A stretch of DNA of 64,000 nt, taken from the NCBI RefSeq assembly GCF_000340215.1, contig NW_006921532.1, forward strand, positions 7,605,910 to 7,669,909, read 5' to 3'. A program made the translations under genes and the position numbers. The notes under the pieces are model-generated. The model saw nothing but the letters and a program-made list of their open reading frames with translations. It was not told the DNA's origin and did no database searches. The DNA comes from Pseudocercospora fijiensis CIRAD86 (Eukaryota; Ascomycota; Dothideomycetes; Mycosphaerellales; Mycosphaerellaceae). This document shows positions 2,958 through 64,000 of this stretch, piece after piece (positions within the stretch are counted from its first letter, which is position 1; each line of letters begins with the position of its first letter).

Positions 2958-3775
2958 GCTAATCTATCTAAGACCTCTATAGTTTGCACTAAGACTGCGA
3001 TATTCTAACAAAAACTATACTCTTTCGGTTAAATACGCAGTCGACGCCCGCTAAAGCTATAGTATACCTACTCGCTAGGAGAGTCGCCTTCGCAACGTCT
3101 TACGTCGGCAAAGCCTATCGGAGACCTTAAAAGAAAAGAAGGACTAAACAAACTCTACCGATCGAGGAACCTTAACTAACTTAAGCGGTTCTATCGGTAG
3201 CAAGCTATAGGACTAGTTAGGAGATAGTGTTAATCGCTATAAAGCTACCTATATACGACAAAGAGGTATCGACACTATTACATACGCCGATAGCTAGTAT
3301 ATTACTAGGGGTGTTAGTGTATTAGTATATATAGAAGAAGAAGAAGAAGAAGAAGTTAAACTAGGAAGCGTAGGTCTATATTAGCGCATCGTAGGTAAGG
3401 TTTGCCTCTACTAATAGGATTGCGCTATTTACGCTATAATAGTAAGGCAACAATAACGGCTATATATTATCGCACTTTTAATATATTATCGCACTTTTAA
3501 CGTAATAGCCGCCGACTACTACTAGTTAAATACCTAAGGCTAGAATGCCTAAGGCTAGAATTGCTAGCGACTAGAGGCATAGGCAAGGACTTCGCATTAG
3601 GCTATAGCTAGTTTGAAAAGCTCTTCGGTACGATAACAGAATGTGCTCTACGCTCGTTAGCCGACGTAGCTCTTTACTCGAGTTATCGTACGCCCGCATC
3701 CCCGACGAGGTACGTAATCTAGTCTACCGCTACTACTTCGCCGCTAGGCGCGCACTCTAGTCTACGGAGCTATTA

Positions 3776-4453
3776 GCTATTAAGCTATCATCGTACGCCT
3801 AGCCTAGCTAGCTATTAAGCTATTATCGTACGCCTAGCCTGGCTAGCTGTTAAGCTATTATCGTACGCCTAGCCTAGCTAGCTATTAAGCTATTATCGTA
3901 CGCCTAGCCTAGCTAGCTATTAAGCAATTATCGTACGCCTAGCCTAGCTAGCTATTAAGCAATTATCGTACGCCTAGCCTAGCTAGCTATTAAGCAATTA
4001 TCGTACGCCTAGCCTAGCTAGCTATTAAGCAATTATCGCACGCCTAGCCTAGCTAGCTATTAAGCAATTATCGCACGCCTAGCCTAGCTAGCTATTAAGC
4101 AATTATCGCACGCCTAGCCTAGCTAGCTATTAAGCAATTATCGTACGCCTAGCCTAGCTAGCTATTAAGCAATTATCGTACGCCTAGCCTAGCTAGCCAC
4201 CAAACAATTATCGTACGCCTAGCCTAGCTAGCTATTAAGCAATTATCGTACGCCTAGCCTAGCTAGCTATCAAGCAATTATCGCACGCCTAGCCTAGCCA
4301 GCTATTAAACAATTATCGTACGCCTAGCCTAGCTAGCTATTAAACAATTATCGTACGCCTAGCCTAGCTAGCTATTAAGCAATTATCGTATGCCTAGCCT
4401 AGCTAGCTATTAAACAATTATCGTACGCCTAGCCTAGCCTAGCTAGCTATTAA
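3776..4453 (+). repeat. 35-bp satellite array, about 19 copies
   Basis: A unit containing ATTATCGTACGCCTAGCCTA and AGCTAGCTATTAAGCA repeats with an exact 35-bp period, for example at 3,961 and 3,996. Most differences between units are C/T or G/A transitions such as CGTACG/CGCACG and GCTATTAAGC/GCTATTAAAC, as expected of RIP acting on an already amplified array. Confidence 0.9.
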
Positions 4454-4640: not shown

Positions 4641-6210
4641 CCTTTAAAAGTTACTACTACCCTTACTACTAAGGCTACCTATGCGTGCGAGGAGACCTAT
4701 ATTAGCTCCTTCTACTCTACCGTTGCTAGCGCTAGCGCTAGTGCCTATGCTAGTTATGTCCTAGGTTTCTATACCCTCGAATAGCTAAGTAGTACTATCT
4801 GTAAGCTGAACCTATACATTATCTCGCTCTAGATTAAGTACTACATCCTTAATTAGACCGTAATTAACACTATCTAGGCGCTCTATAGCATTAGGACCCT
4901 CTAAGGCATTAGATTCTAGCACCGTAGTACGGCCTCGAATAAAGTTCTAGTTAGTAGCGTTAAAGTTCTCGACGACTAATAGTATCTAATCTATACCGAT
5001 ATTCTAGATATCGTCCGAGAGCGTAAAATCTCCGTGCTACTACTTCGCGAACCTATCGATACGGATTTTATTAGCTCGATTAAATACGCCCGCGCTAATA
5101 TCCTTATTAGTATAGTAACTAGTCCGATAGATACTAGAATTCTCCCTAAATATATCGCGGATAAGGCGAGATGCCTCTCGGTTTATCGATACTCGTTTAA
5201 AGGCAGTAGCAAGTCTATAAGTCGAATTAGTAAGGCGATTATAGTCCTCGGATAGGGCATAGTTAATAAGCTTAATTATCTTATTACTACCGACAGTATA
5301 GCCCTTCTTTCTAGACTAATTAACGGTTATAGTAGCAAGGACCGCCTTCTGTGGGTCCTTAGTACTACCCTTATTAAGGAGGAAATAGAAATAGGTTATT
5401 AGACGACTATAGTTGCTCTGTCTAGCTCTAAGGAACATCGGGATAGTATAGTCTACGTATCGACGAAGGTAACCGACGTCCTAGATACGGACAGTATAGC
5501 GAACGCGTAGGAATAAGGAGATCTCCTTTACTAGTCTATATATAGAGGTAAAGGCCGCATCTAGCCTAGTTAGTATAGCGCTATTATCGCCGGCAGGTCG
5601 ATTAGGTATACCCTCCTATACCTCGGGTAATAAGAGCAGCTTATACATTTCCTTTAGGATGTCTATATACTTAGTAGTAGAGATCTTCTCGATAATAGCC
5701 TACTTAACGACCTTAGGCCGGGTCTAGTTACCTTTACTAGCAAGATCCTTAGAGATATAGCTACGGTTAACTATAATCTAGAGGAACACGGCGATAGTGC
5801 GGGCCTTAAAGCAACGCTTTAGTAGTCGCTATATCCGGAAGAATTTTAGCGACTTTAGATTAACCTCTTTTATACCCTAGAAATCGATATTAGACAACAG
5901 GGAGAAGTCTATACGGTTACCGGCCTTGTTCTTATTCTAATAGGTACGGAAAGGCGTAAAGTATAGGTTTATAAAGATATAGAACTAAGCGGGCACTAGA
6001 AGGACATGCTGCTTCCTATCGTATGTAGCCTTGTTCTCGACACCGCTAAAGATTATAGCTAGTATACGCTCGATAGTAAGCTAATTACTAACGTTAATAA
6101 TTAACCTATTATCGAAGATCGGATTATCGGGCTTTAGACTAAGGTTGCCTTAGTAGATATCGTCGTATACTAAGGCAGTGCCCTTATTAGAGATCTCGTT
6201 ATTCTACGAT
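4641..6210 (-). pseudogene. DUF6589-like gene, 3' half (interrupted by the hAT element)
   Basis: Read on the minus strand from the hAT junction, one frame runs to about 4,641 with only RIP-type stops. Early motifs are GTALVYDDIYQGN, a degraded GDQLT-type block (now NVSNQLTIERI) and FYIFINLYFTPFRTY, where Tyr replaces probable His (CAT to TAT). From memory these match the layout of fungal DUF6589 proteins, a family common in repeat-rich fungal genomes. Removing the 8-bp TSD joins this half in frame to the half at 16,121-17,960, across LAMPLS and NNEISNKG, so this was one gene before the insertion. Its biochemical function is unknown. The family name rests on by-eye motif matching. Confidence 0.55.
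6203..6210 (+). repeat. left target-site duplication of the hAT element
   Basis: TCTACGAT directly abuts the left terminal inverted repeat and is repeated at 16,121-16,128 beside the right one. An 8-bp duplication is diagnostic of hAT-superfamily integration. Confidence 0.9.
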
Positions 6211-6230
6211 TAGACCCCGCAGTGGTTCGG
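6211..6230 (+). repeat. left terminal inverted repeat of the hAT element
   Basis: TAGACCCCGCAGTGGTTCGG. Its reverse complement occurs at 16,101-16,120 with one transition difference. It is followed inward by GT-rich subterminal repeats (GGTTTAGTTTGCTAAG-like) typical of hAT ends. Confidence 0.9.
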
Positions 6231-6641
6231 GTTGGTTTGGTTTAGTTTGCTAAGCCGAAACTCTAGTTTAGTTTGGGTTGGTTTGCTAAGCAACTACATA
6301 AGTAGCTAGTTCGAACTATATAATTTATCGGTTTTTAAGAAGTGTACGAATGTATACGTAGCTTTAAGCAAGCCCTTTATAAGACTTAGCAGTATAGCCG
6401 GCAGCGTAGCCGGCATTTTTAGTCCTTAGTACTTATAGAATTTTCGAATCCCACTTAGGCTACGTAGTTGTATAAAGGTACTTATATGACCTCAAATCTA
6501 TAGACAATTAGCTAAGGGCACTAACCAATCAAAAGCATATACATATATACAAGGCATTATAGTTCAGTTCGGAAACTGTACTCCTTAGGTATAAATTTTA
6601 TCCTTTCGTTTACGGTTCAATTCCCTAACTGCTTAGCAGAA

Positions 6642-7163
6642 TGTCTTTATCTAGATCTAGGTAGAACTCATCGATTTCCCTAGAAGTCCTCCTTCTTAAG
6701 AAGTTTATACACTTTCCTACCGAACTATTCGACAACATTAAGTACTAGGATAGCTCCTCCCTTAGTATCGGCATAGTATATAAAAGAGCTATAAGGCAGC
6801 TCTATAGAACGTTCTACTAGTCACTCGCTATACTAAGGCCGAATGCTAGTTCGTTCCTTAGAACTCTTAGTTATTTAGGAGATATAAAGGGTAGGGCAGG
6901 TAGTGACTTCGTATTGTATAAGGAGGTAGAGGCTGCTATAGAAGAGGCCTTCAACCTATAGAAGATAGTAAAAGATATAGAGGCAGCTATAGGTCTAGGT
7001 ACCTAGTTGAATTTCTAGTAGGTAGAGTATAAGGATATTTAGAGGGAGTATTAGGTAGAGTTGCGAAGGCAGGTATATAATATGCTCTAGAAAACAGGGA
7101 TAGTGCCTATAACTATAACTATTAGGCTCTTCAACCTTCCTTATTTTTCCCTGTTTTCTTTTT
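6642..7163 (+). pseudogene. decayed ORF in the hAT element, function unknown
   Basis: An ATG at 6,642 opens a frame of about 170 codons broken only by TAG codons. The reading contains FIHFPTELFDNIKY near the start and an acidic, helical stretch (EVEAAIEEAF, VKDIEAAIG) in the middle. A block near 7,231-7,320 downstream contains the element's GCCGGC repeat followed by GTACTAACGGGATTTTAG, a plausible plus-strand branch and acceptor site, so the gene may have had another exon. I do not recognise the protein. Confidence 0.4.
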
Positions 7164-7504
7164 ATAAAAATCTAAACTAATATAAATCAACCGGAATGTC
7201 TATCTTCTTTTAGTTCTTTGAAAAACCTAGCAGCGTAGCTAGTAGCGTAGCCGGCAGCGTAGCCGGCAGCGTAGCCGGCCTTTTTACTCCTTAGTACTAA
7301 CGGGATTTTAGGAGACTTCTATTCCGTATAGCTAATAAAGTATACTGTACTATATATATATGCTTAGAGAGTATTTAGAGCGCGGTATACAGCGCCGTAT
7401 AACAGCGGCTCATTTCGTATATAGAAAAGCTTGTAGACGATACTACGAATATCCTTCCTACTAGTATATCTATCCTATCTAGCACTATCTCGAATGTAGA
7501 CATT

Positions 7505-8177
7505 CTAGCCTTTTAGGATCTAATCGAGTGCTTTGAAATCCTTATCTATAATCGTTATACGCTTCGCGTAGATAGCTATAAGGTTAACCGCTAAAATAGT
7601 ATTAGTATAGTCCGAAAAGAGGTAGAAGAGAAATATATATTCGAAGATACGAACTAGGTAGGCTTCTATAGCCTCTTAAAGGGCGCCTATCGCGGAGGCT
7701 TAGAAGCGAAGGTCTATTCTATAATCCTAGGCAATTTCGCGAACAAGTCGTTAGAAAGGAGTTTTGCGGATTAGGAGCTTAGAACTCTTCTAATACTGCC
7801 GAATCTTACGGAGGGCTACGGCTAAAGAAGGATTAGTAAAAAGACAGTAAGAATGCCGGCTACGCTACCGGCTACGCTACCGGCTACGCTGCCGGCTGTA
7901 AATAGGACTTACTTCCTAGGCGCTATCGACGCTTCGTACGATTGCTACTAGTAGTAGAAGCGCTAGTTGTCGTCTTACGTAGAGCCTTGCCCGCCGTTGT
8001 CTTACGCGGAGCCTTGCTCGCGACGCCCTTTCTAGTACCGGAGCTAGCGGCAGTAGTAGCAGCTATCTTACGTTAATATACTATACTCGCTCCTTTATTT
8101 CCGATCTTGTTGCGACCCGTAGAAGTAGTAGGTCCCTTCTTGCGAGGCGTCGTAACTTAGTTAAGTAGATTCGCTAT
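7505..8177 (-). pseudogene. histone H3-like gene B inside the hAT element (three exons)
   Basis: Minus-strand exons 8,177-7,913, 7,821-7,639 and 7,590-7,505 encode a histone H3-type protein. Exon 1 gives a tail of about 88 residues rich in Lys, Arg, Ser and Thr (for example APRKTTAGKALRKTT). H3 normally has about 44 residues before the GTVALR block. Spliced exon 2 gives GTVALRKIRQY, LLIRKTPF, RLVREIA, IDLRF and ASAIGAL. Its five stops sit exactly at the glutamines conserved in H3 (after RQY, PF, EIA, RF and GAL). Exon 3 continues VNLIAIYAKRITI. Loop 1 is not lengthened as in most CENP-A proteins. The C-terminus after helix 3 diverges from H3. Intron 1 has a GTAAGT donor and the element's GCCGGC repeat. 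Intron 2 (48 bp) has a TACTAATAC branch site; its donor is now AT, probably RIPed GT. The H3 fold is read directly; its role in transposition or chromatin is unknown. Confidence 0.85.
7822..7912 (-). repeat. GCCGGC-repeat intron in H3-like gene B
   Basis: A 91-bp intron from GTAAGT to TTTACTAATCC...TTTAG. Most of its length is a 12-bp repeat (GCCGGCAGCGTA). It interrupts the codon for Thr in GTVALR. The equivalent position in H3-like gene A has no intron. Confidence 0.75.
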
Positions 8178-8705
8178 TATAAAAGTCGTCGAATTAAGGA
8201 AAAAAGTGCGTTACGAAGGTATACGAAGGCGCGCGCGGAGCGAGGGTATTACGGAGGTAGCAGATATAGAGCGTAGAGGTATAGGTATCGATACGAAGGT
8301 TGAATATAGCGAGAGAGGTAGTGTCGCGGTATCGCTAGGCAATAGAGTAAGCTTCGCGTAAGCCTATATTATAGTAACGTTAGAGCAAGGAAAGAAGGCA
8401 GGTACGGCTGAAAAAGGCAGGTACGGCAGACTTTGAAATATAGCCGGCATATATAGCCGGTATAGTAATAGGCGAAAGCCTCCTTTTAATAAATAGCCGG
8501 CGTGATAATAGTATCCTACTATAGTATAGATATTCTTTAGTAATGCCTTTACTAGCTATAGTAATCTTATAAGTAACCTAGGCCTATTGCTAGTAAATAT
8601 AAGAAATATTAGGTAGGCTATACTAAACAAGCTAGTTATTTAGCAGAAAAAGGCCTACTACCGTCTCTATATGCCGGCTACGGGTGCCGACTATCGCTCT
8701 AAATT
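8178..8705. other. spacer inside the hAT element
   Basis: No gene recognised. Two or three GCCGGC-type motif clusters lie at 8,443-8,505 and 8,673-8,690. A short purine-rich, CpG-rich stretch (8,228-8,290) could belong to the promoter side of H3-like gene B, but no defined signal is visible. Confidence 0.4.
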
Positions 8706-9427
8706 CAACTCCGCCCTATCTCGGAGGCTAAGGTACCGAGCGGAAACCCTATAGCTTATATTCACTCGGTTATCGCGGAGCGCTTACAGGTAAGGTATTA
8801 GAAAAGAGTATAAAAAGTACGAGAAGAGTATCCTAGGATATAGGTCGTAAGTGAATAAGAGTAGCACGCCTAGTTATTTATATAGTACGTTACTCTATAC
8901 GACTAAGAGCCTATATTACCTTGTACTTCGCTTATAAGACCTCGACTCTACTAGTATACTATCGATCTCCTCCTCGGTCGCTAATACGCTGTCTTAATTC
9001 TTCTTCGAGTTACCGGACTTAGTGCGTATCTATAGCTATATAATAGCGCTACGTATTATAGAGAATCAACTCCGCCGTATCTCGAAGGCTAAGGTACCGA
9101 GCGGAAACCCGATAGCTTATATTTACTCGGTTGTCGCGGAGCGCTTATAGGTGAGGTATTAGAAAAGAGTATAAAAAGTACGAGAAGAGTATCCTAGGAT
9201 ATAGGTCGTAAGTAAATAAGAGTAGTACGCCTAGTTATTTATATAGTACGTTACTCTATACGACTAAGAGCCTATATTATCTTATGCTTCGCTTATAAGA
9301 CCTCGACTCTACTAGTATACTATCGATCTCCTTCTCGGTCGCTAATACGCTGTCTCAATTCTTCTTCGAGTTGCCGGACTTAGTACGTATCTATAGCTAT
9401 ATAATAGCGCTACGCATTATAGAGAAT
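8706..9427 (+). repeat. 361-bp direct tandem duplication
   Basis: Copy 1 is 8,706-9,066 and copy 2 is 9,067-9,427. Both begin CAACTCCGCC and end ATTATAGAGAAT. They differ at roughly a dozen positions, including transitions such as GTGCG/GTACG and a few transversions. Readable frames exist on both strands: minus ATEKEIDSILVESRSYKRS, plus EYKKYEKSILGYRS. I cannot decide which was coding. It occurs only inside the hAT element. Confidence 0.85.
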
Positions 9428-9439
9428 TTCTCGTTAAAG

Positions 9440-9720
9440 TTTCTCTCTTATAGGCTTACTATCTACCTCGTAGTATAGAGGATCAAAGTGCTAATACTAA
9501 AGAATCTCCTTATAGTTAGGATACTAGGGCTCCTTAGGACCTTTGTATTTTAGGTCTAAATAGAGACGTATTATAAACGTTCCATCGCCCTTTCGCTTAC
9601 TACCCGCTAGGTCGCGATATGCGAAGAAACTAATCTAAATGTAGCTCGTCTCTGTAATAGCCGGATAAATATAGAGCGCTAGGTTTCTACTTCGTACCTT
9701 AGATTTAGGGACGGCGCGGA
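9440..9720 (-). pseudogene. decayed ORF fragment, function unknown
   Basis: The minus strand just downstream of H3-like gene A reads about 85 codons with RIP-type stops, including SKVRSRNLALYIYPAITETS and FFAYRDLAGSKRKGDGTFI. It may be a separate gene or the far C-terminal end of a neighbour. I do not recognise it. Confidence 0.3.
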
Positions 9721-9727
9721 GATAAAA

Positions 9728-10426
9728 TCAGAAATGTAGCCGGTACCTATAGCCGGCAAAACGATGCGAAAATAGGCCTCCTCCTAGGTTAATCTAACGA
9801 CTAAATACAATTTCTAACTAATCCGCTGTAAACCGACGCCGAATTTTAGCTAGCAGCTGTATATCTTTATTTTAAAGAGTAACCCGCTTCGTATAGATAG
9901 TAAGGAGGTTTAAAAGCTTAAGCTCGGTTACGAGAAATGCCTCCGTAGCTTCCTAAAGAGCACTAATCGCCTTAGCCGTAAATCGTATACTAGACCGAAA
10001 ATCTAATGTAATTTCTCGGACGAGTCGCTAGAAGGGAGTCTTAGGGATTAAAAGCTCGGTCCCTCTTTTGTTTTAAAAAAGCCGGATCTAGCGAAGGGCA
10101 ATAGTACCTAGTTTGAAGCGCCGCTTCTTTATCGTCGAGTCCTACCTTATTCCCTTTCTTTTAATAGAAAGATAACTTTTCTTCGCGACAGTCTTTGTCC
10201 GCCTACTCTTTTTAGCCTTCTCCTATCTACCTATAGCCTTCTTGTTTTTCGGTACTGTTTTCCGAGGAACCCCCTTCCTTCGTATATACTACGGAGAGCC
10301 TTACTCTTCCGATATCTCGTTCTCGCTACGGTCTCCCTATACTTAGCTTACTTTACCCTTACCCTTTAGCCTCTAAAGATATTTATCTACGCGTTTAGGC
10401 GACGAGGGTATATCGGTAGGACCTAG
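9728..10426 (-). pseudogene. histone H3-like gene A inside the hAT element
   Basis: The minus-strand frame has an N-terminal tail of roughly 105 residues dominated by Lys, Arg and Ser (RRKGVPRKTVPKNKKAIGR near 10,270-10,210). A full histone H3 fold follows at about 10,130-9,834: KKRRFKLGTIALR, TELLIPKTPF, RLVREITLDFRSSIRF, AISAL, EATEAFLV, LLTIYTKRVTL and NKDIQLLAKI. Stops in the fold lie at H3 Gln positions (PF-stop-RLVREI, SAL-stop-EATEA) or at Trp/Gln-type codons. Unlike gene B there is no intron at the GTVALR position or after the FED position. The frame runs past the usual H3 C-terminus to a TGA at 9,728-9,730. Loop 1 has normal H3 length, but the tail is far longer than canonical H3, so this is a divergent H3 variant. 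The start codon cannot be placed; 10,426 is the upstream limit of the clear frame. Confidence 0.85.
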
Positions 10427-10716
10427 AAATTAATAAGTATATAATCGTAAGGAGACATTAATGCTTCTTACCTTCTAGAACAAATAGTCTTCTATTAAAC
10501 CGCCTTATTAGGTTATCGTTAGATTCGAATAAAGGATAGTAGCTTAAGGAAGGGGAGGCAGCCGGCTTAGGAAGGCCCGAAGAGCCGAATCCTTAAGGTA
10601 TATTTGTCTTTAAGAATATAGGGAAAGGGAAGAAGGAGAGGAAGAGCGAATAGAGAATTAGAAATAGTCCGTAGGTAAGCGGGGTCGGTTGCTATAGCAA
10701 CTAGTCTGTTTAGGTC

Positions 10717-10773
10717 CTAGGAATTCGAAATACATTTCGGATATATACCGGCTATATACGCCGGCTATATTAC
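10717..10773 (-). repeat. probable GCCGGC-repeat intron near the transposase 3' end
   Basis: Starts GTAATATAGCCGGC and ends ATTCCTAG, with two GCCGG motifs. No clear branch site remains, so this intron call is weaker than the others. Confidence 0.4.
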
Positions 10774-12117
10774 CTTATACGTAAACGCTTCGTCTCCTTA
10801 AAGCTGCTCTAAGCCTATATACGTTTCCGCTTCTCGACCTAGTATCGCCTTCTACCTCCGCCCTCCTCCTCTTCGTTATCGCTAATTAGGGTTTCGCTTA
10901 GACTAAATTTCGTATTCTCTTCGCGCTCCTAGGTTTCTTCGATCTTAAGATTTTCTAATTCCTCGATTAACTCCTTTAGTATAATCTTTAGTAACCTGCC
11001 TTAGCGATTCTAGTAGAGGAGATAGTATCGGAATACTATAATAGATTCGAAGGTAGTAGGCGAGTATATTCGATTAAAGCGGCCCTAGTAACGAGCGATA
11101 CTAAAAGACCTCTTATAGCCTATACCTACGCTCGGGATAGCGAGGACGTCCCGAGCGACCGACGCTATCGTTAGAAACTTAGGCTCTAACCGCTGCTATA
11201 TAGCGAGAATATCGTCTCCGAATTCGTTTAGAAGACCGGTAAGATCTAGAGATTATTAGCCCTCTTTCCGAGCCTACGGGTTTATACTTACTCGCGCGCC
11301 GATAGAGATCGAACTCTTCTTTATTTACTTTAGTAGTTGCTTCCTCTTCTGCCTCTACTTCCTACCTACGAAACAGGTATAATATCGGAGCCTTCTAAAC
11401 CTTCTTTTTCTTTATAGGAGCTATATTTAGACTAGTTTCTTTCCGACGCTCGTAGAATATCTTTTCTAGAATAGTCTAGTAATGCTTCGGCTATACCTCG
11501 TCCGCCTTCTATTCCGGCCTCTACTAGTATATATCCTTTTCTACCGGGTTAAGCAAGCACGTAACGCTATAGATATCCCCGAACGAGTTAAAGGTAGCAC
11601 TGTAATATTTATGCAACTTAGTATAGGAGGTGTCTATAGCTTTTGTTATAGCTACTTTCTAGGGAACGCTCTTCTTAGCTAGCTTAGCTACGGTTTCCTC
11701 GAGCTCGTTAAAGAGCTAGTTATAGTACGTAAAGACAAGGTAGATCGTCGGTCCTCGGGTTCTTCTAATCGTAGTAGTAACCTTCGCGTAATGCTTACTA
11801 ATATCGACGAGATACTCTGCTTAGCGCTATTCGGCGGCGGTAAGGCCGAGCTACTTAATACCCTCGGAACTCTAATAGATCTCGAGAGCGGTACGTAAAG
11901 TATATCCCCTCGTAACTATATAGAAAGTCGAATCGAACCGGGTCTTAACGTCTTAGGTAAAACGGAGTAGGCGCTAAGGAGGCCGCTTTTGCTATCGCTT
12001 ATTCTATGCGATATTCTAGGCATCGGTTTTAGGGCGCTCGATTAGGTTCTTTTAAATAGCCTCGAATCGGTTATATCTCTATAAGCTCGAGTTCGTATAT
12101 ATTGCTAGACGACGAAG

Positions 12118-12186
12118 CTAGAGAAAAAGAGTTAGAACTATACTAGGTTGCCGGCTATAGGTGCCGGCTACGGATAAAAGTTATAC
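12118..12186 (-). repeat. GCCGGC-repeat intron in the hAT transposase
   Basis: A 69-bp intron: donor GTATAACT, two GCCGGC motifs, branch-like TTCTAACTC, acceptor CTCTAG. Confidence 0.65.
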
Positions 12187-13141
12187 CTTATATAAAACGA
12201 GAGCGAGGCTCTCTACCTTATCCCGTCTTATTGCTATAATAAGTTTCTCGACTTTCGACTTTGCTTTATCCTTATCTAGGATCTTCTATTAGTCGTCGTT
12301 TAATAGTGCAATTTTAAGCGTCTTAAAGAGGGCTCGGATCGCGATTTGAACTATATAAGCGAGGTAGGGAAACTTCTATAGGGATGCAACTAGTAACGAC
12401 GTCGGCTCCGATTTAATAGGGCTAGGGCTATTAATAGGCTCCTCTTTATCGTTATTATCGTGCGTATTGTCGTGCGTATCCGGAATCGTAGCGAGCTTAA
12501 CATTCGGAAGATTAAGCTAGATTGTAGACCTTATAATCTCCTCTACGTACTCGACCCTATCGATACAATTAGTGATTTTAAAGATATATGCGAGTAAATT
12601 GTATATACAACGCCTTATACAATGTTCGATTATTACTAGCGTTATCCGTAGTAATCGAGATCAGTTTCGTTGTTACGCTAACCCTGTCTATTACCGTATA
12701 GACAAGCTTCGCTATATCCTTACTAGTATAGGAACCTAGAATTTCAGGGAATCCGATTATAAGTTCCTAGAGTTTCTAATCCGAATTAATAAAGTATAGT
12801 ATAATCGAGAGGAAGGAGGCTCTTACAGTCCGGCTTAACTAGCTATTAATAGCAATAGCTACTCGGCGAGTATTACGGAGGATCTCCCGAATGTCGTCTA
12901 ACGTAGCCTCTTTGTTCTTTTCGAACATAATACGCTAGGTTGTCGCGCCGAGAAATAGGGGAGGGTAGTTTATAAGATATAGGTATGTCTTCTATATAGA
13001 CTCCCTTTCGTAGAAGTCTTCCGGAAGACCGTTTGTAGCTAGCATTTCGTTTGCTAGTTACTTAAAGTCTTCGGGGGAGAAATCGGTAGCCTTTAATCCT
13101 AGAGCTTCCTTTAGCGTAGCCTATAATAATTAGCTAGATCT

Positions 13142-13220
13142 CTACGGTTAATTTAGGTAGCCGGAATCTATAGCCGGTAGCTATAGCCGGTAGCTATAGC
13201 CGGCATTTTAGAAGACATAC
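13142..13220 (-). repeat. GCCGGC-repeat intron in the hAT transposase
   Basis: A 79-bp intron with donor GTATGT, one GCCGGC and three CCGGCTATAG-type motifs in tandem with a 13-bp period, and acceptor CCGTAG. The exon reading resumes directly afterwards. Confidence 0.7.
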
Positions 13221-14550
13221 CTCTTTCTAGAACGCTATATCTATATTAACTCTCCTCTCTCCTTAAGATTCCTAATACTGTTTAGAATAGAGATAGTTCG
13301 TAGGCGATAAGTTCCTATCCCCTAGTTTCGGGTATTTTGAGATTGAACCGTAGAAGTTACGGACAATTACTAGTTAACCTTTAAGTCGAGAAGTCGTATA
13401 ACGGTGCAATGCCCCCTCTATAAAGAACTTCTAGAATGTGTCCGTTCGCTCCTTACTCCCCTATCGCATCGAGTACTTCCGGAGTTTACACTCCTTCGAA
13501 CGTAAGTATAAAGGGAACTATATCTTATAGACCTATTAATTAAACTGCTCTATATACTCGGGTTTCTAAAGATACGCCTAGCTAGCCTTTTCGAAGATTT
13601 CCGGGTTAATACTCGATGTTCTTATATCTCCGAACAACCTTCTACTTAGACTCCGTAAAGGTAAGGACTAGGTAGTGGTATCCTGTAATGAATTCCTACT
13701 ACTAGGATTCGGAGAGGATAAATCTAGCCCTAATCGTAGTCTAGGACTCGATAGGCTCGAAGGTGAGTATACGACCTCCTCTCGACGTTGTCGCAATCTC
13801 GCTCGTATACTAGACTGTTTCGACTGTCGTCTCGTTGTTACCCTTCCTAGTATAGCGCCTAGTATATATATAATGTCGGTCGGCATGTTTTAAGGTTTCG
13901 TACGGTAAGGTAAGGACTTAGGAGTAGTAGATATATACTAGTAGCTATAGAGAAACACCCTTTCTTTTATAGCATCGTATCGTTAGGAATAGCTAGGCAG
14001 TAAATAGCTAGCTACCTTTTTTTTTTGTTTCCTAGCTACCTAACTACTAGATTTTTTTTCCTAGCTACCCTAGCTAGCCTAACTACTAGAATTTCTTTCC
14101 TAGCTACCCTAACTACCTAAATTTTGCCTTCTATACGGCGGCTCTCTCCTACTAACGGAACCGAGCTACTATACCTAACGAATCTAAGCTCGTTTTCAGT
14201 CTTAATCTATCCTCTTTCGGTATAAGACACTCGATAAGCAAATGCTTAGGCCGAGTCTAACTACGAAACCTAAGACTAACTAATAGCTCTATTAACTAAT
14301 CCTAATCCTCGAACTCCTTCCGCTTCTTAGTAAAGACCTTAAAGAGCGCTCGAGCTTCTTCGGGTGCCTACGGAGTAGTCGAGATAAAGCCGTATCGCTA
14401 AAATAGGTAATCCTTCGGAGGCTTATATAGAGATTTAGAGAATTCTAACGCCAACCTATCCTACTAGCAGCTTAGATTCCGGATACAAGCCCTCTCTGCC
14501 TTAGTAAAGATTTTATATAGCAGTAGCACTCTACCTTCGAGAAACGCTTT

Positions 14551-14598
14551 CTATTTAACTATTAGTATCTACCGGCTACGAACGCCGGCTATATATAC
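14551..14598 (-). repeat. 48-bp GCCGGC-repeat intron in the basic-protein gene
   Basis: Donor GTATAT, two GCCGG motifs, a perfect GATACTAATAG branch context and acceptor AAATAG, all within 48 bp. Confidence 0.75.
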
Positions 14599-15097
14599 CG
14601 AGTATAGAATAATTACCTATACCCCTTCCTCCTATAGTAACACTTCTACCGTCCTTAGATACCTAGCCCCGATCGCATTAATCGCAAGCTACTTTGCCTT
14701 TATAGACGTAAAGGCTTCGCTCTAATACTAATAAAGAAACTTCTACTCTATATCGAGGATATAAAGACGACTAGTCTCGATTCCAATCCTTGCTAGCTTT
14801 TTATAGTAGCTTTAACTATAATTTTCTAGATTGATAGGACTTATACCTTAGCCCTTTACTAGTATCTCGTCTCTTTAACTATACTCGATCTACTCCTAGC
14901 GCTTATCGTCTATAGCGTTAGGCCCTAAGACTGCACCTATTACTAGATCGATGTATAGTATCTCCTCGCTTTTTTTAGTTCCTTTATTCGTAGTATTAAG
15001 CTCTGTCGCGGTATCCTAAACTCTAGCATTATTGTTCTCGGCTATCTAAACATCTCCGTTACTATCGGTCGTATCGATAGAGGTAGCGGCTATAGGT

Positions 15098-15204
15098 CTA
15101 AATACTATTAGTTAACGTATTAAAGAAAAATATGCCGGCTATAGCTGCCGGCTACGGCTGCCGGCTATAGCTGCTAGCTACGGCCGCTAGCTAGATTGAC
15201 TTAC
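15098..15204 (-). repeat. GCCGGC-repeat intron in the basic-protein gene
   Basis: Donor GTAAGTC, several GCCGGC/CTAGCGGC motifs, branch GTTAACTAATAG, acceptor TATTTAG; 107 bp. Confidence 0.75.
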
Positions 15205-15659
15205 GCTGCTAGAACTTTACGCTCGAAAACTAGCCGCAATTCTTTCCTCCTCTTAGCCTTCTTTTAGGTTGTCTTCTTATTCTAACCTTTACTTTTTTCT
15301 ATAGGCGCTAGCTATCGATAGAATGCCTTATTCCGCGCCTTTCTTCTCTTATCCTTAGCTCTTTTATCCTTATCTATCTTGTCCTTTCTCTCGCGGTCTC
15401 GTACGGAATTCTTCTTCGTAGAGTACTCCTCTTTAGTCTTGCGCTTTTTAGTTAGACGCTTAGGCAAAACAAACTCGCGGTCTTTAGTTCTATCTTCTGT
15501 TTAGCGCGCGGCGCGCTTCTCTCTTACTATTGTAAGGGAAAGGGGCGGGGGCGTAGCGTATAGTAGTTGTTGTCGGTATAGGTATAGAGGAAGAAGTTAA
15601 AAGTATAAGAATGTCGCGAAGCCCTAATTGTTGCCGCCTACGTAACGTTATATAGGTAA

Positions 15660-15985
15660 GCTTTCGCAACTACGGTAACTACGCCCCGGCAATAGCAACT
15701 ACGCCCTAGTAACGGCAACTACGCCCTAGCAACGGCAACTACGCCCTAGCAACGGTAATAAAGCGTAGTAAATACAACCTAGTAACTATTATAGCCGGCA
15801 ATCGTAGCCGGCAGTCGAATAAGAGTGTCCTTGTAGCAAAACTACGCCCTAGTAACGGCAACTACGCCCTAGCAACGGCAACTACGCCCTAGCAACGGCA
15901 AAAGAGCGTAGTAAATATAATAGAGTTACTATTATAGCCGGCAATCGTAGCCGGCAGTCGAATAAGAGTGTCCTTATAGTAAAAC
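15660..15985 (+). repeat. nested tandem repeats at the right end of the hAT element
   Basis: A 20-bp unit (CAACTACGCCCTAGCAACGG) occurs in two blocks. Each block is followed by a shared segment with GCCGGC motifs and TCGAATAAGAGTGTCCTT, giving a higher-order period of about 144-146 bp. Such subterminal arrays are common near hAT ends and may have bound transposase; that role is inference. Confidence 0.8.
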
Positions 15986-16100
15986 TAATACAGTCTCTAG
16001 TTCAAACTAGGAATCTATATAGTTCGAAAAAACTAAACCGGAACTAGGGAGCTAGTTCGCCGCTAAGAAACTAAACTATATACGTTTAGTAGTTCGGAAA

Positions 16101-16120
16101 CCGAACCACTACGGGGTCTA
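16101..16120 (-). repeat. right terminal inverted repeat of the hAT element
   Basis: CCGAACCACTACGGGGTCTA, the inverted copy of the left end, is followed directly by the TSD at 16,121-16,128. The inner flank carries CTTAGCGG/GTTTAG motifs like those inside the left end. Confidence 0.9.
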
Positions 16121-17960
16121 TCTACGATAGAGGCATAGCTAGTAGCTAGGTCTTACTACGGAAGCTATAGTCAATCTCCGGATATACTAGTTCTTCGACT
16201 AGATTACTAGTATCCTTCGCTACCTTAAAGATCGTCTTAATCGCGTTACTAAACACATATATACAAGCTTCGTAGAGCTAGTACATTTCGACTGCTATAA
16301 TAGTATTATTATTGTCGATGTTTTAGATAATGTTCTTAGTTAGGACTAGCTTCGAGCGGTCTAGTATATCCTACGTTAAACCCCTCTCTAGTATATCCTC
16401 GTAGAGAGCGATATACGAGTTAGTAATGTTAACCTATTTATTGTTGTCGGCAATGTCCTATATTAGCGTTAGCAAGTGCTCTAGTATAGTAACTAATATC
16501 TATATACCTAATCCTTCCGCTTTGCTTAGCGATTGAAGTTGTCGTAGTAGATCTACTAGATATATAACTTAGCCTACTCTAAGATCCTTAGCCGCTAAGT
16601 GTTAGCATTCTTCTTAATTAACGCCTAGATCGTCTTATACGAAGGAAGCAGGCCTATACTATATAGGGTATCGATAAGCGGAGCTAGTAGGTTGCTAATA
16701 TATACTAATAGAAGGCTAAGCGACTTTAGTATCTAGGAGGCCCGCTTTATTGCTATTAAATATACTACTATGTATATAATCGTATAGATACGCTTCTATA
16801 TTATGTTCCGCTTGTCCTCGAACGACATTGCTCGCTATACGGTGTCCTTATAGGTATTTAGTAGTATAAAGTCCTTAAGTAGGCGGTACTAATTCGGAGC
16901 GATATTATAGATTATATCGTATATATCGGAGAGACAACGTAGTAGTATAAGGCTGTCTTCTAGCTTATACGCATTAAAGAACTTCTTACTAACTAAGTTC
17001 TTAACCTTAGCTCGTAGCTATATAGCACTAATAAGATGCTCGTTTAGTAGTATATCTTAAACCGCCTATATACGCTTGCGGTAGGTCTTAGTGCCCTCCT
17101 TACTAAACTATATAAATATTATCTTCTCTATTAGCAATTTAAGCTAACTAAGATACTTTATAGCAAGGATATACTTCTACTTTAGCGTACGGCGCTAACT
17201 ACGGACGCTAGTAGCGACAACGAGCTCGCCTTCGTTATCGCCTTCGTTATCGCCTTTATTATCGTCTGCTTCTTCTATCTCGTTAAGGCCGCGCTTACTA
17301 GGCCGCTATATAGGCCGATCGTCGTTATTATTAGAGGCATTGCTAGTATAGCGCTCATCCTCTAACTCGCCCTCGCTCTACGACTCTTTATCTATATTAG
17401 TATCCTCGTCCTTAGTTAGACTATTATTAACTAGCTAAGCGTATATAACATTCCGATTAGCGTTCCTTAGGCGGCGAGCAGACCGCTTAGGCGGTTAGCG
17501 GATAGGCTAGCGTCGAGCAGCTAAGCGGTCTTTATTGCCTAGTATATACTTAGAGTTGTAATAATCGCTATAATACTAGCGCTAGCGGCGGCGGTCTTTA
17601 TCGAATAGACTAGCGAATATAGGACCTAATATATCTAGTAGATCTAATAGATCGGAAGTCTCTCCTAGTAGCGGTAGATCTTCTAAAGTAGCTATTTCTT
17701 TGTCTTCCTCGTCTAGTCGAGGTAGTAAGTCGACGTTTTATTCTTCGCTATAGCGGTCTAGCTTAGAGGTTAGTAGTACTTCTATTAGATAAGATAAGCT
17801 ATGCTAATTATCTCCGCTACGACGATTAAGCTTAGAAGTGTTAGCTTAATTAGTTAAGTCGGAGCCGCTTATAGTGTCGCTTGTACTACTAGTACTAGTA
17901 TTTATTAGCGCTCGAAGTAGTCGACTCGAGTAGCTAGCTAGCTAGCTAGCTAAAGTCGCC
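16121..17960 (-). pseudogene. DUF6589-like gene, 5' half
   Basis: The minus strand from about 17,960 to the hAT junction contains an acidic and Arg/Ser-rich N-terminal part. The core follows, with SYKTI, LIKKNANT and IYYDNFNR (about 16,555-16,530), then a helical block with NSYIALYEDILERGL and VYPEIDYSFRSKT next to the junction. A YDNFN-type motif followed by a GDQLT-type motif is what I remember of fungal DUF6589 proteins. The first 8 bases (16,121-16,128) are the right TSD of the hAT. The frame joins to 6,210 after its removal. Confidence 0.55.
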
Positions 17961-24393: not shown

Positions 24394-27300
24394 GCGCCGC
24401 ACTAACTATTAGCCTTATACGGCGTAAAACCATCGATATAGTGCTAGCTATTATACGTACCTATCTCGTAGGAGATACGTATAGGAACAACTATAAGACT
24501 AAGGTTACGCTAGACCTAGGAAATTCAGTTAGCGCCCTTATTAGCTATCGCCTAGCTAAGCAATTAGACCTTCGATAACTGCCTAGGACTAACCTGCTAA
24601 CCCTTACTTAGTTTAATAACGCTCGGCACTTGACCTACGGAGCCTACTATATCTATATAGCCCTAAGAGACGACCTCGGCAATAAGCGCCTACTAAACTT
24701 TACTGCCTACGTAGTAGACATAGACAGCCTCCTATCTAAGATTGTTATTAGCAACCCTGTTCTTAAGTACTATGCTATAGTTATAGACTTGGGCAGTTAA
24801 TAGTAGCGATTTAGGATCGCTAGGAAAGAGGACACTAAACATATCGATGTTAGCGAGTGCCCTAACGATATTAGGGTCCTATTTATCGGCAACCTAACAC
24901 CTGCCGCAGCTAACCTAATAGTCGACCTATTAGGCGATAACGATAAGCCTATGCCCCCTAATAGTATAGACTCTAATTAGCTTACTCGTATACCGGAGCC
25001 TATTCGAGAAACCTATACTAATGTGTTTAAATACTGCTTAGTATCGACATTGCCTATGTTTAAAGAGACGGATTATAAGATTGATATTATAGAGGGCAAG
25101 GAGGTTCCTTTTAGGCTACTCTACAACCTTAGTAAGCGCGAGCTTGCTATGTTGCGTAAGTACCTAGAGGAAAACCTAGCTAGTAGTCGTGTTCGGTACA
25201 GTAATGGCCCTGCTAGCGCCCCTATCCTATTCGTACTAAAGAAGGATAGTAGCCTACGCCTGTATGTTAATTATCGTAGGCTTAACGCTGTTACTATTAA
25301 AGACCGCTGCCTACTTCCTCTTATTAATAAGACCCTCGATCGCCTTTCTAGTACTTACTACTACACTATATTAGACATTAAGGATGTATACTATCGCATC
25401 CGTATCCGTAAGGGTAATGAATAGAAAACAGCCTTCCGTACCCGCTATAGCTATTTCGAGTATCTAGTTATGCCATTTAGGCTAGCAAACGCCCCTATAA
25501 TATTCTAGTCCTACATCAATCGGGCCCTATTAGGCCTATTAGATTACCTCTATATAGTTTACCTAGATAACATCCTAGTTTATATACACTCTCCTAACAT
25601 TGCGGAATACTAGGCTATAGTCCGTAAGGTACTCGATCGCCTAAGGGCCTATAGCTTGTATTGCAAGCCTTCTAAATGTACCTTTGCTACTAAAGAGGTA
25701 TTATTCCTCGGCTTCCTCGTATTAACTAAGGGTGTCAAGGCTAATCCTAATTGGATTAAGACTATTACTAAATAGCCTGTTCCTACGTTAATTAAGGAGC
25801 TGTAGTCGTTCCTCGGTTTTGCTAACTTCTATCGCCGATTTATTAAGGGCTATTCGAGGCATGTAATGCTACTAACTAAACTTACTAAAACTAAGGCTAA
25901 CCCGACTAGAGAGTTTAAATGGACTAACAAAGCGCGAGCCGCTTTTAACGGTTTGAAGCAGCGCTTTACTAAATTCCCCTTGTTGTACTATTTCGTACTA
26001 AGCAAACAGATCCGCATTGAGACTAACGCTTTACAGTTTGCTGTATTAGCTATTATGTTACAACAGGCTAATGACAATTACTAGCACCCGATTGCTTTCT
26101 TCTCGAGGAAGATAATTAATACTAAGCGTCGCTACGAGACCTACGAGCAAGAGCTCTTAGCTATTGTTAAAGCCTTTAAGCACTAGCGCTACTATCTCGA
26201 TAGTGCCTAGCATACTATTTAGGTCTATACGGACTATAACAACCTCCGTAGAATTACGAAGGTTACTAGGGTTATAGGTCGACAGGCTAGATAGGCCGTC
26301 TACCTCGCTAGGTTTGATTTTAATATATTATATCGGCTAGGCGTAAGCAACCCTGCTAATAGCCTATCGAGGCGACCTAATTACGATAGCGGGACTTAGC
26401 AATCTATCAATTTATTGTTTCTAACCCTATAGTATAAGATTGCTATAGCCCGTATTATTAATAAGCAAGCGCAGGATAAGCGGCTTACCGGACTCCGCGA
26501 CGGCTTAAAGCATATTAATGCTCTTGCTATATTAATAGTGCGTGTTAAGGACATAGATAGGAGAAGTTATAATAACTCCCTAGTCGATATTGCTATATAC
26601 AGTAACAGCGATAGCACTGCTGCAGTTAATCCGGCTGCTAGTACTATTAGATATATATAATGCGTACCTCGTTTAATAGCAAGGGTGCTATTAAATAACC
26701 TTATAAACGGGGATAGTCAATCGTTTATAGATAAGCTGTTACGGGCTTAGCAGAGGGACGCCTTTGCTGCTAAACGTATAGACAAGCTTATAAGTAGGCG
26801 AAAGACTCGATCTAGCAAGAGTAACAATTAGTCGATCGATAACAAAGGTTATTTAAAGTTTAAGGGCAGATACTATGTCCCCGCTAAACATTCGATCCGA
26901 TAAGAACTTCTCAAGCGACACTATAATAGTGAGCTTGCCGGTTACTATAGCATAGAGAGGTCGCACGAGCTACTATCGCGTACATACTACTAGCTAAATA
27001 GTAAGCGGGACATAAAGGACTACGTAAATACGTATACCGTATATTAACGAGTCAAAGCGCCGAAGCACTTGCTATTCGGCGAGTTGTCTTTACTCCCTGT
27101 TCTAAAGAAGCTATTTATAGAGCTTATAATAGACTTTATTATAGGACTTCCGCCTGCTAAGCGTAGGGGGGAAGTATACGATACTATCCTTGTTATAGTA
27201 GATCGATTCACTAAGGGCGCTCGATATATCCCGGCGCGTAAGGATTAGACTGCTATTAATATAGCAGAGGCGCTATAGACTGACATCTTCTGTACCTATT

Positions 27301-61680: not shown

Positions 61681-61803
61681 CTAGTTCTATATCTATTATT
61701 TACTTAGTTCCTCTTTCTTACGTTATAATTCTACTTAGCGCTAACGAGAGCACTAGAGGCCTCTATTGCGATATTCTATAGTGTAGATTACTAGCAATAT
61801 AGT
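61681..61803. other. last RIPed bases before the unique flank
   Basis: No gene. Composition changes between about 61,795 and 61,810, where CpA-poor, TpA-rich sequence ends and CACCGAGGCCGGAGCC begins. No target duplication was recognised at this edge. Confidence 0.6.
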
Positions 61804-62164
61804 CTCACCGAGGCCGGAGCCGGCTCTCGGTCCGCGGTCTACGAATAACCAGGGCAGGTTTATGAATAGTCGCGCCCCTGAGATGGGAGTTCCAAGATTG
61901 AAAGCTCGCCGATGATCGGGCCGGCGGAATTCGACCTCCGAAGACGGCCTCAGGCCTCAAATGATACAGTACATGTACCCAACAACGACGAAGATGCTTC
62001 AAACAGTAGCATTCGCCTCCTGAGAATGCTGAGGCGTGCTTGCGCCGGCCCTTCGACATTTGATCTTGGAGGTGTGCTGTCGGATCCACAGAATTACCAT
62101 GTACTGTTACCCAGCGCCTATCCCTCGTCCTCTGTGGGAAACTTGCTAGATGACTGCAGAATTC
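61804..62164. other. non-RIPed intergenic or 5' region
   Basis: Normal fungal composition. Overlapping frames exist on both strands (61,912-62,238 plus, 61,805-62,215 minus), but neither has a recognisable motif and both overlap the start of the gene at 62,165, so I do not call them. Confidence 0.45.
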
Positions 62165-62609
62165 ATGTCTCGATACGTCATATCTATCATCGTCGACGGA
62201 CCGGGCAGACCCCAACCATCGATCCCATTGGGCCCTAGCGGTTCACAAAGAGAACGAACAAAGAGGCACTATGCTCCACGTAAGCGTAATCGACCTCCCG
62301 AGGCTGGTCTATCAATATGATCTGAGGCGCGATGTCGTACTTCGCAGCGCAAGCTCGGAAGGCCCATTCACTGTGGCTGCATTAGCCCAAGGCAGCGTTG
62401 ACAGGGCTGTCCAGCTAATCAGCGAAGAGCCTGCGCCTAGAGATGGGGTGGAGAGATGTCAGGACTGGGTGCTGAGGGCAATGATCACGCTCGAGGCAGA
62501 AGAAATAGTTCCTGCAGGCACATCTCATTGGGTATCTGGCTTGGTCGGCCAACCCGCAAACAGCGTGGCTCGGGCGGTGGGGGAAAGGTGGATATCTCCT
62601 GATGCATGA
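62165..62609 (+). pseudogene. small conserved fungal protein (DUF6914-like), apparently frameshifted
   Basis: The ATG at 62,165 opens MSRYVISIIVDGPGRP. One base must be removed from the C4 run at 62,210-62,213 for the frame to enter NHRSHWALAVHKENEQRGTM and continue, LHV...CQDWVLRAM...AVGERW, to TGA 62,607-62,609. That gives about 148 residues. The HWAL, GTxxHV and CQDWV landmarks and the size fit, from memory, a fungal family of short conserved proteins of unknown function (I believe DUF6914). The stretch from 62,271 alone is open for 112 codons. The codon use is normal and there is no RIP. The extra C may be a real lesion or a sequence error. Confidence 0.55.
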
Positions 62610-62654
62610 GGTTGACCAAATCAGCTGCTGAGTAGTCGTTCTTGGCGGAGGAGA

Positions 62655-63508
62655 TCAGACACCTGTATATCTTGTCAGCGTTTGGTTGAGTCGTTCGAAA
62701 ACTTCATAGTTGTCTCGCTCGTTCTCATCGAAAATTTCATCAAGTGCTGCACCCCATGTTGGCTCACGAGCCCAAGCCCGACACTTGGCCTCAAAGTATT
62801 CTCTGCCGCGAATACTGAAGCCGGCACCTTCCCAATCAATGATACCTGTGATGCGATTCGTTTGCTCGTCCACGAGAATGTTGCCAGGACGCAAGTCTCC
62901 GTGTGAGAAGACTTTGGTGTCGTCCGTGAGTCGAAGAAGCTGCTCAGCCACATCTTGCTCGACATCATCGAATCCGCCCTCTGGGCGCGCGTTGTGCAAT
63001 GCATCGATAAGTCCCTGATTATACTCTCGGCGATCCCTGAACGGTCCGTACGATATTTTGACATTCTTGAACGGAAAATGCATGAAGAAGACATCCATGC
63101 ATGGCTTTTCCCAAAGAGCACCAAAAAGTCTCCGCGCAGGGAGCCCAACTCCTGCACGATGTCTCGTAGTTGGCTCACCAACGAACTTCTGTCGACTGGC
63201 GAGAGCTGCTTCCATATGTGCGACAACGGCTTGCCTGGCACGTGGTCCATGAAGATATAACCAATGCCCTCTGATTCATATGCCTCGTGCACTCATGGGA
63301 CCGAAACCTTTATCGCGCGAGAGACGTAACGCATAGCCTCGGCTTCGCTGAGCTGGACGCCTGCTCCTGCTTTAAGGACTTGATTGGTGTTGTCGATAGT
63401 GTATATGCCAGGCGCATTGTATTCTCGAGGCATGCTCTGCGCTCCTGCTGGGAGCACAAGGTGGTCCTCTGGTGAGGCCAGGAGAGCGGAAATATCAATG
63501 TCGCTCAT
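62655..63508 (-). pseudogene. APH-fold phosphotransferase (aminoglycoside phosphotransferase family), two lesions
   Basis: The minus-strand ATG at 63,508-63,506 starts MSDIDISALLASPEDHLVLP. GIYTIDNTNQVLKAGAGVQL (strand 1-2, ATP-binding Lys region) is followed by AIKVSVP, a TGA at 63,295-63,293, then VHEAYESEGIGYIFMDHVPG, the usual APH hinge. After SLRGDF the frame must shift by one at a T5 run (63,123-63,127) to enter FGALWEKPCMDVFF, GPFRDRREYNQ and the catalytic loop SHGDLRPGNILVDEQ (about 62,910-62,862) with IIDWEGAG as the metal-binding Asp. Stop TGA at 62,657-62,655. The protein would be about 284 residues, normal for fungal APH-domain proteins, whose substrates are mostly unknown. The stop probably replaces Arg (CGA to TGA). 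Everything else is well conserved, so inactivation is recent or the lesions are sequence errors. Confidence 0.8.
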
Positions 63509-64000
63509 GACTTGACGGTATGCCGACGGCGGAAATCCCTTGCTCTTTCTAGCGTTGTCGATTGACAAACAAGTGCTGGTAGGCTGCTAAGCGCTCCTAC
63601 AATTTGTACGTTCTCGTTGCAATTTCTCTTGCGGTGAGGCTCTCTGCCGGCGCCAAGTTTGTCCGTCCCATCAGTTCTTGTAGCGGGTAGCCAGCGCAGC
63701 AATTCACCTGCAGAATAATTCAAGCCACTCCGACATCGAGACTTTAGCTGCCAACCCCTTTCGAGGATCATCATACGTAGCATCGAAGCTGTTATTATTG
63801 CGCAACAACGAGAAGTCGGCTTCGTAGGAGAGATCGCGCGGGCGCGCCTGTCAGACCTTTGAAGGACCAAGGCTCTCCTGATCTGTGCGGAGGAACGAGA
63901 TGCACGCGGACAGCATATGGGCATGAGAATGTCCAGGGAATGCTTCACGTCGAACTCAATGAGGAGAGAAGACGCGAAAGCGGGCTTGAACCCGTTCAGC
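63509..64000. other. upstream region of the APH gene
   Basis: Normal composition. A minus-strand open frame (63,948-63,505) has no recognisable motif and overlaps the APH start in another frame, so it is not called. No promoter element can be supported by eye. Confidence 0.45.

What the first reader, a model, noticed from the sequence alone, without database searches (positions are those of the whole stretch)
7505..8177. Histone H3-like gene carried by a hAT transposon (gene B)
The minus-strand exons spell the H3 core in order (GTVALRKIRQY, LLIRKTPF, RLVREIA, IDLRF, ASAIGAL, EAYLV, AIYAKRITI), with a basic tail about twice the length of the H3 tail. All five stops in exon 2 fall at H3-conserved glutamines, exactly what RIP does to CAG/CAA. 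The gene lies well inside precise hAT termini with an 8-bp duplication. Seen directly: fold, stops, borders. Inference: it was element cargo, possibly used to alter chromatin at the transposon or its targets.
Basis: partly seen in the sequence, partly recalled or inferred. Interest (0 to 1): 0.92.

Follow-up and report, generated by a model that had tools for sequence, protein, structure and literature searches.

The report
Dead histone H3 genes inside transposon
A high-copy fungal DNA transposon carries two broken histone H3-like genes, which was already published; the extra stretch described in one of them looks like a spliced-out intron rather than a protein insertion.

Summary
Gene B (7505-8177, minus strand) matches the Pfam histone profile at 96.5 bits. 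It lies in a complete 9,910-bp element (6211-16120) with 20-bp inverted repeats and 8-bp target duplication TCTACGAT. Its five exon-2 stops fall at H3 glutamines. A second H3-like gene, A (9821-10282), lies in the same element, a high-copy repeat.

What I add: the published '16-amino-acid insertion' is best read as a 48-bp intron. Removing exactly that stretch ranks first of 5,418 variants scored and gives a gap-free alignment to host H3. A 91-bp intron lies one codon from the host's intron 2. So gene B is not intronless, as printed. Three subfamilies keep both genes; exon indels are multiples of three in 8 of 8 rows, suggesting they once coded. Transversion tests were inconclusive. Conserved stops are nearly fixed in the recent burst, so those copies were probably already broken when they spread. 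Function remains untested.

The parts
6211..16120 (.). complete H3-carrying element of 9,910 bp; the genes listed below are on its minus strand
   Evidence: TIR and TSD; left boundary at 6210/6211 in 4 of 6 F1 copies compared, at 6184 in one where a neighbouring repeat overlaps, and broken off at 6935 in one
6203..6210 (.). 8-bp target site duplication TCTACGAT, left
16121..16128 (.). 8-bp target site duplication TCTACGAT, right
6211..6230 (+). terminal inverted repeat, left (TAGACCCCGCAGTGGTTCGG)
16101..16120 (-). terminal inverted repeat, right (one RIP-type difference from the left)
7913..8177 (-). gene B exon 1: long basic tail; start codon not seen (ATA in the copies read)
7822..7912 (-). 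gene B intron 1, 91 bp, GTAAGT...TACTAAT...TAG; holds a 12-bp satellite array; splits the Thr-45 codon
   Evidence: GTAAGT and TAG in 30 of 30 distinct F1 copies; non-triplet length changes between subfamilies
7639..7821 (-). gene B exon 2: H3 alpha-N to alpha-2, with five stops at conserved glutamines
7591..7638 (-). gene B intron 2, 48 bp (the published '16-aa insertion'), ancestral GTATGT...CTAAT...TAG
7505..7590 (-). gene B exon 3: H3 loop 2 and alpha-3, ending in TAG
9821..10282 (-). gene A: second H3-like gene (basic tail and full core, no intron in the core); 5' end not defined
   Evidence: 81.7 bits in the window copy, 93.1 bits in the F2 copy L045; model with the four H3 helices
11050..13050 (-). 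damaged hAT-like transposase in several frames; limits approximate
   Evidence: by eye in six-frame read; PF05699 at 16.6 bits, below its cut-off of 21.4; no hAT domain
14116..14991 (-). ORF X, unidentified, alignable in three subfamilies; limits approximate
   Evidence: no Pfam match, no relative found

Best explanation
The element took up H3 sequence long ago and carries two diverged H3-like genes, A and B. Gene B was a spliced three-exon gene with an enlarged basic tail and an H3-length core. Both genes stayed in frame while the element split into at least three subfamilies, so they were probably translated cargo then (inferred). RIP later turned glutamine codons into stops (shown as pattern). 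The recent F1 burst probably copied elements whose H3 genes already had stops, moved by transposase supplied in trans or by a transposase not yet inactivated (inferred). A role in chromatin is possible only for the ancestral intact genes and is not shown.
For: Borders, TIR and TSD. Pfam histone match. Copy number: 772 candidates, 150 scored, 148 with stops; 435 candidates for gene B DNA, 40 scored, 96-100% identical. Fit to PMC6710886: 73.9-Mb genome, 9.5-9.9 kb element, 20-bp TIR, 8-bp TSD, two H3 copies differing by 16 aa, intact H3 on number 6. Intron 2: rank 1 of 5,418 scored, 167.8 against 146.0 bits; Pfam 81.6 to 96.5; splice-site series GTATGT/GTATAT/ATATGT/ATATAT = 6/5/9/10 of 30 and TAG 30 of 30; gap-free 91-residue core alignment to host H3, 55 identical. 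Exon indels multiples of three in 8 of 8 rows (7 distinct) against 24 of 65 elsewhere. Both genes in 11 of 11 long copies. Near-fixed stops against 31-45% unmutated bases at polymorphic CpA sites.
Against: The window was not compared letter by letter with the published consensus. No transcript was seen, so neither intron is proven; the 48 nt show no transversion between subfamilies in the 8 rows displayed, more conservation than an intron needs. Transversion N/S ratios scatter from 0 to 3.2, so selection on the genes is not shown. F1 gene A has TAG where F2 and F3 have GAG, a stop that RIP alone does not make from GAG. The transposase stays below the Pfam cut-off. The near-fixed stops could partly reflect site-to-site differences in RIP.
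Confidence: 0.8

Rival explanations
1. Published reading: the element picked up an intronless H3 transcript (retrocopy), amplified it passively, and RIP killed the copies; one H3 copy carries a 16-residue insertion by mutation.
For: Gene A has no intron at the host intron-2 position. Intron 2 of gene B is not in host H3, so gene B could be a retrocopy that gained introns later. Selection is not shown.
Against: Gene B has a 91-bp intron one codon from host intron 2 and a 48-bp intron in place of the insertion. Frame-preserving exon indels across subfamilies are not expected of dead passengers.
Confidence: 0.35
2. The two H3 genes are active cargo that the element still uses to change chromatin at itself or its targets.
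For: A related arrangement in P. tritici-repentis has intact H3-like genes and ESTs (PMC3538342, passages).
Against: 148 of the 150 scored histone matches in this genome have stops; the two without are host H3 and host CENP-A. Only 150 of 772 candidates were scored, so an intact copy elsewhere is not excluded.
Confidence: 0.05
3. Gene B is a separate insertion with its own borders inside the hAT, or a chance resemblance to H3.
For: None found.
Against: Both genes in the same order in the window and in 11 of 11 long copies from three subfamilies; E = 1.7e-27 to PF00125. The longest inverted arms nearby, 7237-7288 and 7846-7897, do not border the gene: the second lies inside intron 1.
Confidence: 0.02

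Closest known systems
Histone-H3-carrying hAT element of Pseudocercospora fijiensis (Dhillon et al. 2019, PMC6710886; Results, Discussion part 1 and Methods read)
   Same: Genome size, element length, 20-bp TIR, 8-bp TSD, two H3 copies differing by 16 residues, RIP in the copies, intact H3 on contig/scaffold 6.
   Different: The paper describes the copies as without introns and the 16 residues as an insertion; I read two introns in gene B, and three subfamilies in this genome.
H3L element of Pyrenophora tritici-repentis (Manning et al. 2013, PMC3538342; passages seen)
   Different: About 5.6 kb, one H3-like gene, intact and expressed copies; PMC6710886 reports no sequence similarity between that element and the elements of the six other species. 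I could not compare sequences.
Canonical H3 of the same genome (L001, contig 6)
   Same: Gene B core aligns over 91 residues without a gap, 55 identical, 60 counting stops at glutamines.
   Different: Gene B has a tail of twice the length, different intron positions, and a diverged C-terminal helix.
CENP-A of the same genome (L050, contig 5)
   Same: H3 fold family.
   Different: Genes A and B lack the longer loop 1 and the RW of host CENP-A in the alignment and do not group with it.

Membership tests
hAT DNA transposon | 8-bp target site duplication | tested here: met
   TCTACGAT at both ends of the window element; GAAGTAAA at both ends of the F2 copy L045
hAT DNA transposon | short terminal inverted repeats | tested here: met
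   20 bp with one RIP-type difference
hAT DNA transposon | hAT transposase with recognisable domain | tested here: inconclusive
   PF05699 at 16.6 bits, cut-off 21.4, in the window copy; no hAT domain in nine read-through frames of three copies; PMC6710886 reports DUF659 but not the dimerisation domain
P. fijiensis H3-carrying hAT family | about 9.5-9.9 kb, two H3 copies differing by 16 residues, 20-bp TIR, 8-bp TSD, RIP damage | tested here: met
P. fijiensis H3-carrying hAT family | sequence identity to the published consensus | not testable with these tools
Histone H3 (canonical-type core) | significant match to the core histone profile | tested here: met
   96.5 bits for B, 93.1 for A of L045, 81.7 for A of the window; cut-off 26.4
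Histone H3 (canonical-type core) | H3-length loop 1 and no CENP-A grouping | tested here: met
   alignment and tree
Intronless retrocopy of host H3 | absence of introns | tested here: not met
   for gene B: GTAAGT/TAG 91-bp intron in 30 of 30 copies and 48-bp intron, by sequence signals, no transcript; gene A core has none

The most novel reading that the evidence does not exclude
Fungal hAT elements carry their own old, fast-evolving, spliced H3-variant lineage (genes A and B, perhaps with intact relatives such as P0022), kept by selection through subfamily divergence to act on the chromatin of the element, rather than passive retrocopies of the host gene.
Probability: 0.25. Interest if true: 0.78.

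Novelty: already known. Interest (0 to 1): 0.38.

Why it matters
The element and its H3 genes are in print, so the discovery itself is ordinary. The correction matters to anyone using the published account: if gene B has introns, the absence of introns cannot be used to argue that a transcript was captured, and no insertion in the histone core need be explained. The frame-preserving changes among subfamilies turn 'was the histone ever useful to the transposon?' into a question that related species, and the intact copies reported in P. tritici-repentis, could answer.

Tried and rejected
Selection by transversion-only N/S ratios between subfamilies: too few changes, ratios from 0 to 3.2, no conclusion. 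Pfam search of the transposase in nine read-through frames of three copies: no hAT domain. Relatives of ORF X with a three-row alignment: none at E up to 1 among 7,996 scored candidates; its words come from RIP-damaged sequence, so a miss is weak evidence. Relatives of A (47 hits) and B (146 hits, 120 listed, 7,992 candidates scored): of the 29 sequences I opened, many are canonical or near-canonical H3s; none was a clear intact orthologue, and no genomic context is available. CENP-A origin: not supported. Separate insertion of the H3 gene: not supported. Rfam at gathering thresholds: nothing in the window. Folding gene A without an alignment gave a poor model. A first splice-site script matched nothing because of an error in my pattern; the corrected pattern found 26 rows but allows only transitions at many positions, so it cannot itself show the lack of transversions; searches use no such pattern. 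One search covered only about half the loci because of strand and was redone. Literature: six searches gave PMC6710886 and PMC3538342 as the papers on this subject that I opened; I saw no paper that describes introns in these H3-like genes, but the library holds only open-licence PubMed Central papers and I did not open the other papers listed. PMC3029354 on introns of fungal histone genes was read in part (part 1 of 3); its tables of intron positions were not available.

Full report
What is there. Gene B lies on the minus strand at 7505-8177 and encodes an H3-like protein that I read as three exons (7913-8177, 7639-7821, 7505-7590). It reaches 96.5 bits against the Pfam core histone profile, cut-off 26.4. 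The five stops of exon 2 stand exactly at the five glutamines of host H3 in that stretch. Over 30 distinct copies they read TAG or TAA in 149 of 150 cases. The tail is 87 residues with 21 lysines and arginines and no acidic residue, against 44 and 14 for host H3. No ATG is seen at the presumed start.

The element. TAGACCCCGCAGTGGTTCGG at 6211 has its inverted partner ending at 16120 with one CpA-to-TpA difference, and TCTACGAT flanks both ends. The element is 9,910 bp. A second H3-like gene, A, lies at 9821-10282 on the same strand. Further right on that strand are a damaged hAT-like transposase, whose dimerisation domain scores 16.6 bits against a cut-off of 21.4 and which gave no hAT domain, and an unidentified frame, ORF X.

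Copy number and host. The window lies in an unnamed 73,937,190-base genome. A histone search gave 772 candidates, of which 150 were scored; all 150 matched, 148 of them with stops and 2 without. The two are host H3 on contig 6 and host CENP-A on contig 5. Gene B DNA gave 435 candidates; the 40 scored are 96-100% identical over the query. These counts are lower bounds.

It is published. PMC6710886 (Results, Discussion part 1 of 2 and Methods read) describes in P. fijiensis 784 H3-like sequences in 471 hAT elements, full-length 9.5-9.9 kb, 20-bp TIR, 8-bp TSD, two H3 copies per full-length element differing by a 16-residue insertion, all RIP-inactivated except the original H3 on scaffold 6. An earlier H3-carrying hAT element with intact genes and ESTs is reported in P. 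tritici-repentis (PMC3538342, passages).

The 16-residue insertion is best read as an intron. It is 48 nt, which is 16 codons. In 30 distinct F1 copies its 5' end reads GTATGT in 6, GTATAT in 5, ATATGT in 9 and ATATAT in 10: the pattern expected if RIP (TpG to TpA on this strand) hit an ancestral GTATGT. All 30 end in TAG, and CTAAT lies upstream of the 3' end. I scored the in-frame excisions of 30-90 nt starting in exons 2-3 with a profile of H3 proteins: of 5,418 scored sequences (one without excision) the exact predicted splice ranks first, 167.8 bits against 146.0 with no excision. Excisions of 48 nt shifted by a few bases score nearly as high, so the score fixes length and place, and the splice signals fix the register. 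Pfam rises from 81.6 to 96.5 bits, and the core then aligns to host H3 over 91 residues without a gap. Against this reading, the 48 nt show no transversion between subfamilies in the 8 rows displayed, more conservation than an intron needs, and no transcript was seen.

Intron 1. Gene B also has a 91-bp intron, GTAAGT to TAG in 30 of 30 copies, splitting the codon of Thr-45; host intron 2 splits Gly-44, one codon before (H3 numbering from recall). Its indels between the window and L045 or L049 are 13, 1, 21 and 1 nt, and it holds a 12-bp satellite. Whether it is the host intron shifted by a codon or a later gain is open. Gene A has no intron in its core. So the printed statement that intron sequence is absent does not hold for gene B, although a retrocopy origin followed by intron gain remains possible. 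Fungal H3 genes of Pezizomycotina do have introns, with one hot spot (PMC3029354, part 1 of 3 read; positions not seen).

Were the genes once functional? Three subfamilies were separated: F1 (window, L039-L044, about 97%), F2 (L045-L048, 76-86% to the window over segments above 900 nt) and F3 (L049, 86-89% to the window). The window and all 11 long copies fetched carry both genes; 6 copies were picked by a gene B hit and 5 by a gene A hit. F2 copy L045 is complete, with TSD GAAGTAAA. Between the window and L045 or L049, exon indels are 6, 21, 12 in A and 3, 3, 6, 27, 3 in B: 8 of 8 rows, 7 distinct events, are multiples of three, against 24 of 65 rows of up to 60 nt elsewhere in the aligned blocks. 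That favours translation during divergence; at the elsewhere rate chance would give 7 of 7 about once in a thousand (my arithmetic), though events are few, MAFFT placed them, and the elsewhere rows include transposase. Transversion-only ratios do not settle selection: between subfamilies they run from 0 to 3.2. Against host H3, second-position transversions are 9-15 and third-position 21-25 of 91 codons in 8 rows, which fits some constraint but includes the strongly constrained host branch.

Timing of death. Polymorphic CpA sites in 30 F1 copies keep the unmutated base on average in 31-45% of copies, by context (314 sites), yet the five conserved glutamine sites of gene B keep it in 1 of 150. 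Among 95 sites still CpA in an F2 or F3 copy, 23 are mutated in all 7 F1 copies, while the rest spread from 1 to 7. I infer that the F1 progenitor was already damaged before its burst; strong site-to-site differences in RIP could explain part of this. F1 gene A has TAG in 12 of 12 copies where F2 and F3 have GAG, which also fits an old loss in F1 or a glutamine codon hit by RIP.

Relatives. In a tree of 41 cores, A and B group (92/82) and A groups with P0022, an intact 220-residue protein of unnamed origin (91/85); neither reaches the tool's strong mark, and the branches are long. Neither groups with CENP-A. A model of gene A with TAG and TAA read as Q shows the H3 helices (mean pLDDT 71.4, pTM 0.47), and the 50 structure matches listed are nucleosome entries; since the alignment contained H3s, this only confirms the sequence result.

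Verdict. The finding is known, and its chromatin role is untested. The useful additions are the intron reading, the three subfamilies and the frame evidence.

Noticed in passing
window 7228-7280, 7856-7897, 8437-8464, 9736-9759, 10744-10771, 12149-12171, 13158-13209, 15133-15193: A short CCGGC-rich satellite unit (TAGCCGGCAGCG-like) recurs through the element on both strands, once inside gene B intron 1; it might mark other introns or be an intron-borne repeat.
   Followed up: no
window 8705-9427: Tandem duplication of a 361-bp unit (95% alike) between genes A and B, present in other copies too.
   Followed up: no
window 14116-14991: ORF X, an unidentified frame alignable in all three subfamilies with no indel found in the ORF X block tested (rc 1180-1900) and no relative found; the P. 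tritici-repentis element also has an ORF of unknown function.
   Followed up: partly
window 7505-7821 and the same region in L045-L049: The loop-1/alpha-2 region of gene B differs strongly between subfamilies (for example QDYRIDLRFQASAIGAL against VFY.ADLPF.RSVIEAL), faster than its neighbours.
   Followed up: no
window 3774-4445: A 35-bp tandem array of 19 copies, 95% matches, outside the element.
   Followed up: no
window 22578-59558: Flanks of L039, L040 and L044 match several places of the window at 81-89%, so other RIP-damaged repeat families fill the rest; three 133-aa frames at 25023, 51865 and 56750.
   Followed up: no
window 61800-64000: GC-rich end (53-54%) with much weaker RIP signature and frames of 136-205 aa, possibly the edge of a gene-bearing block.
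   Followed up: no
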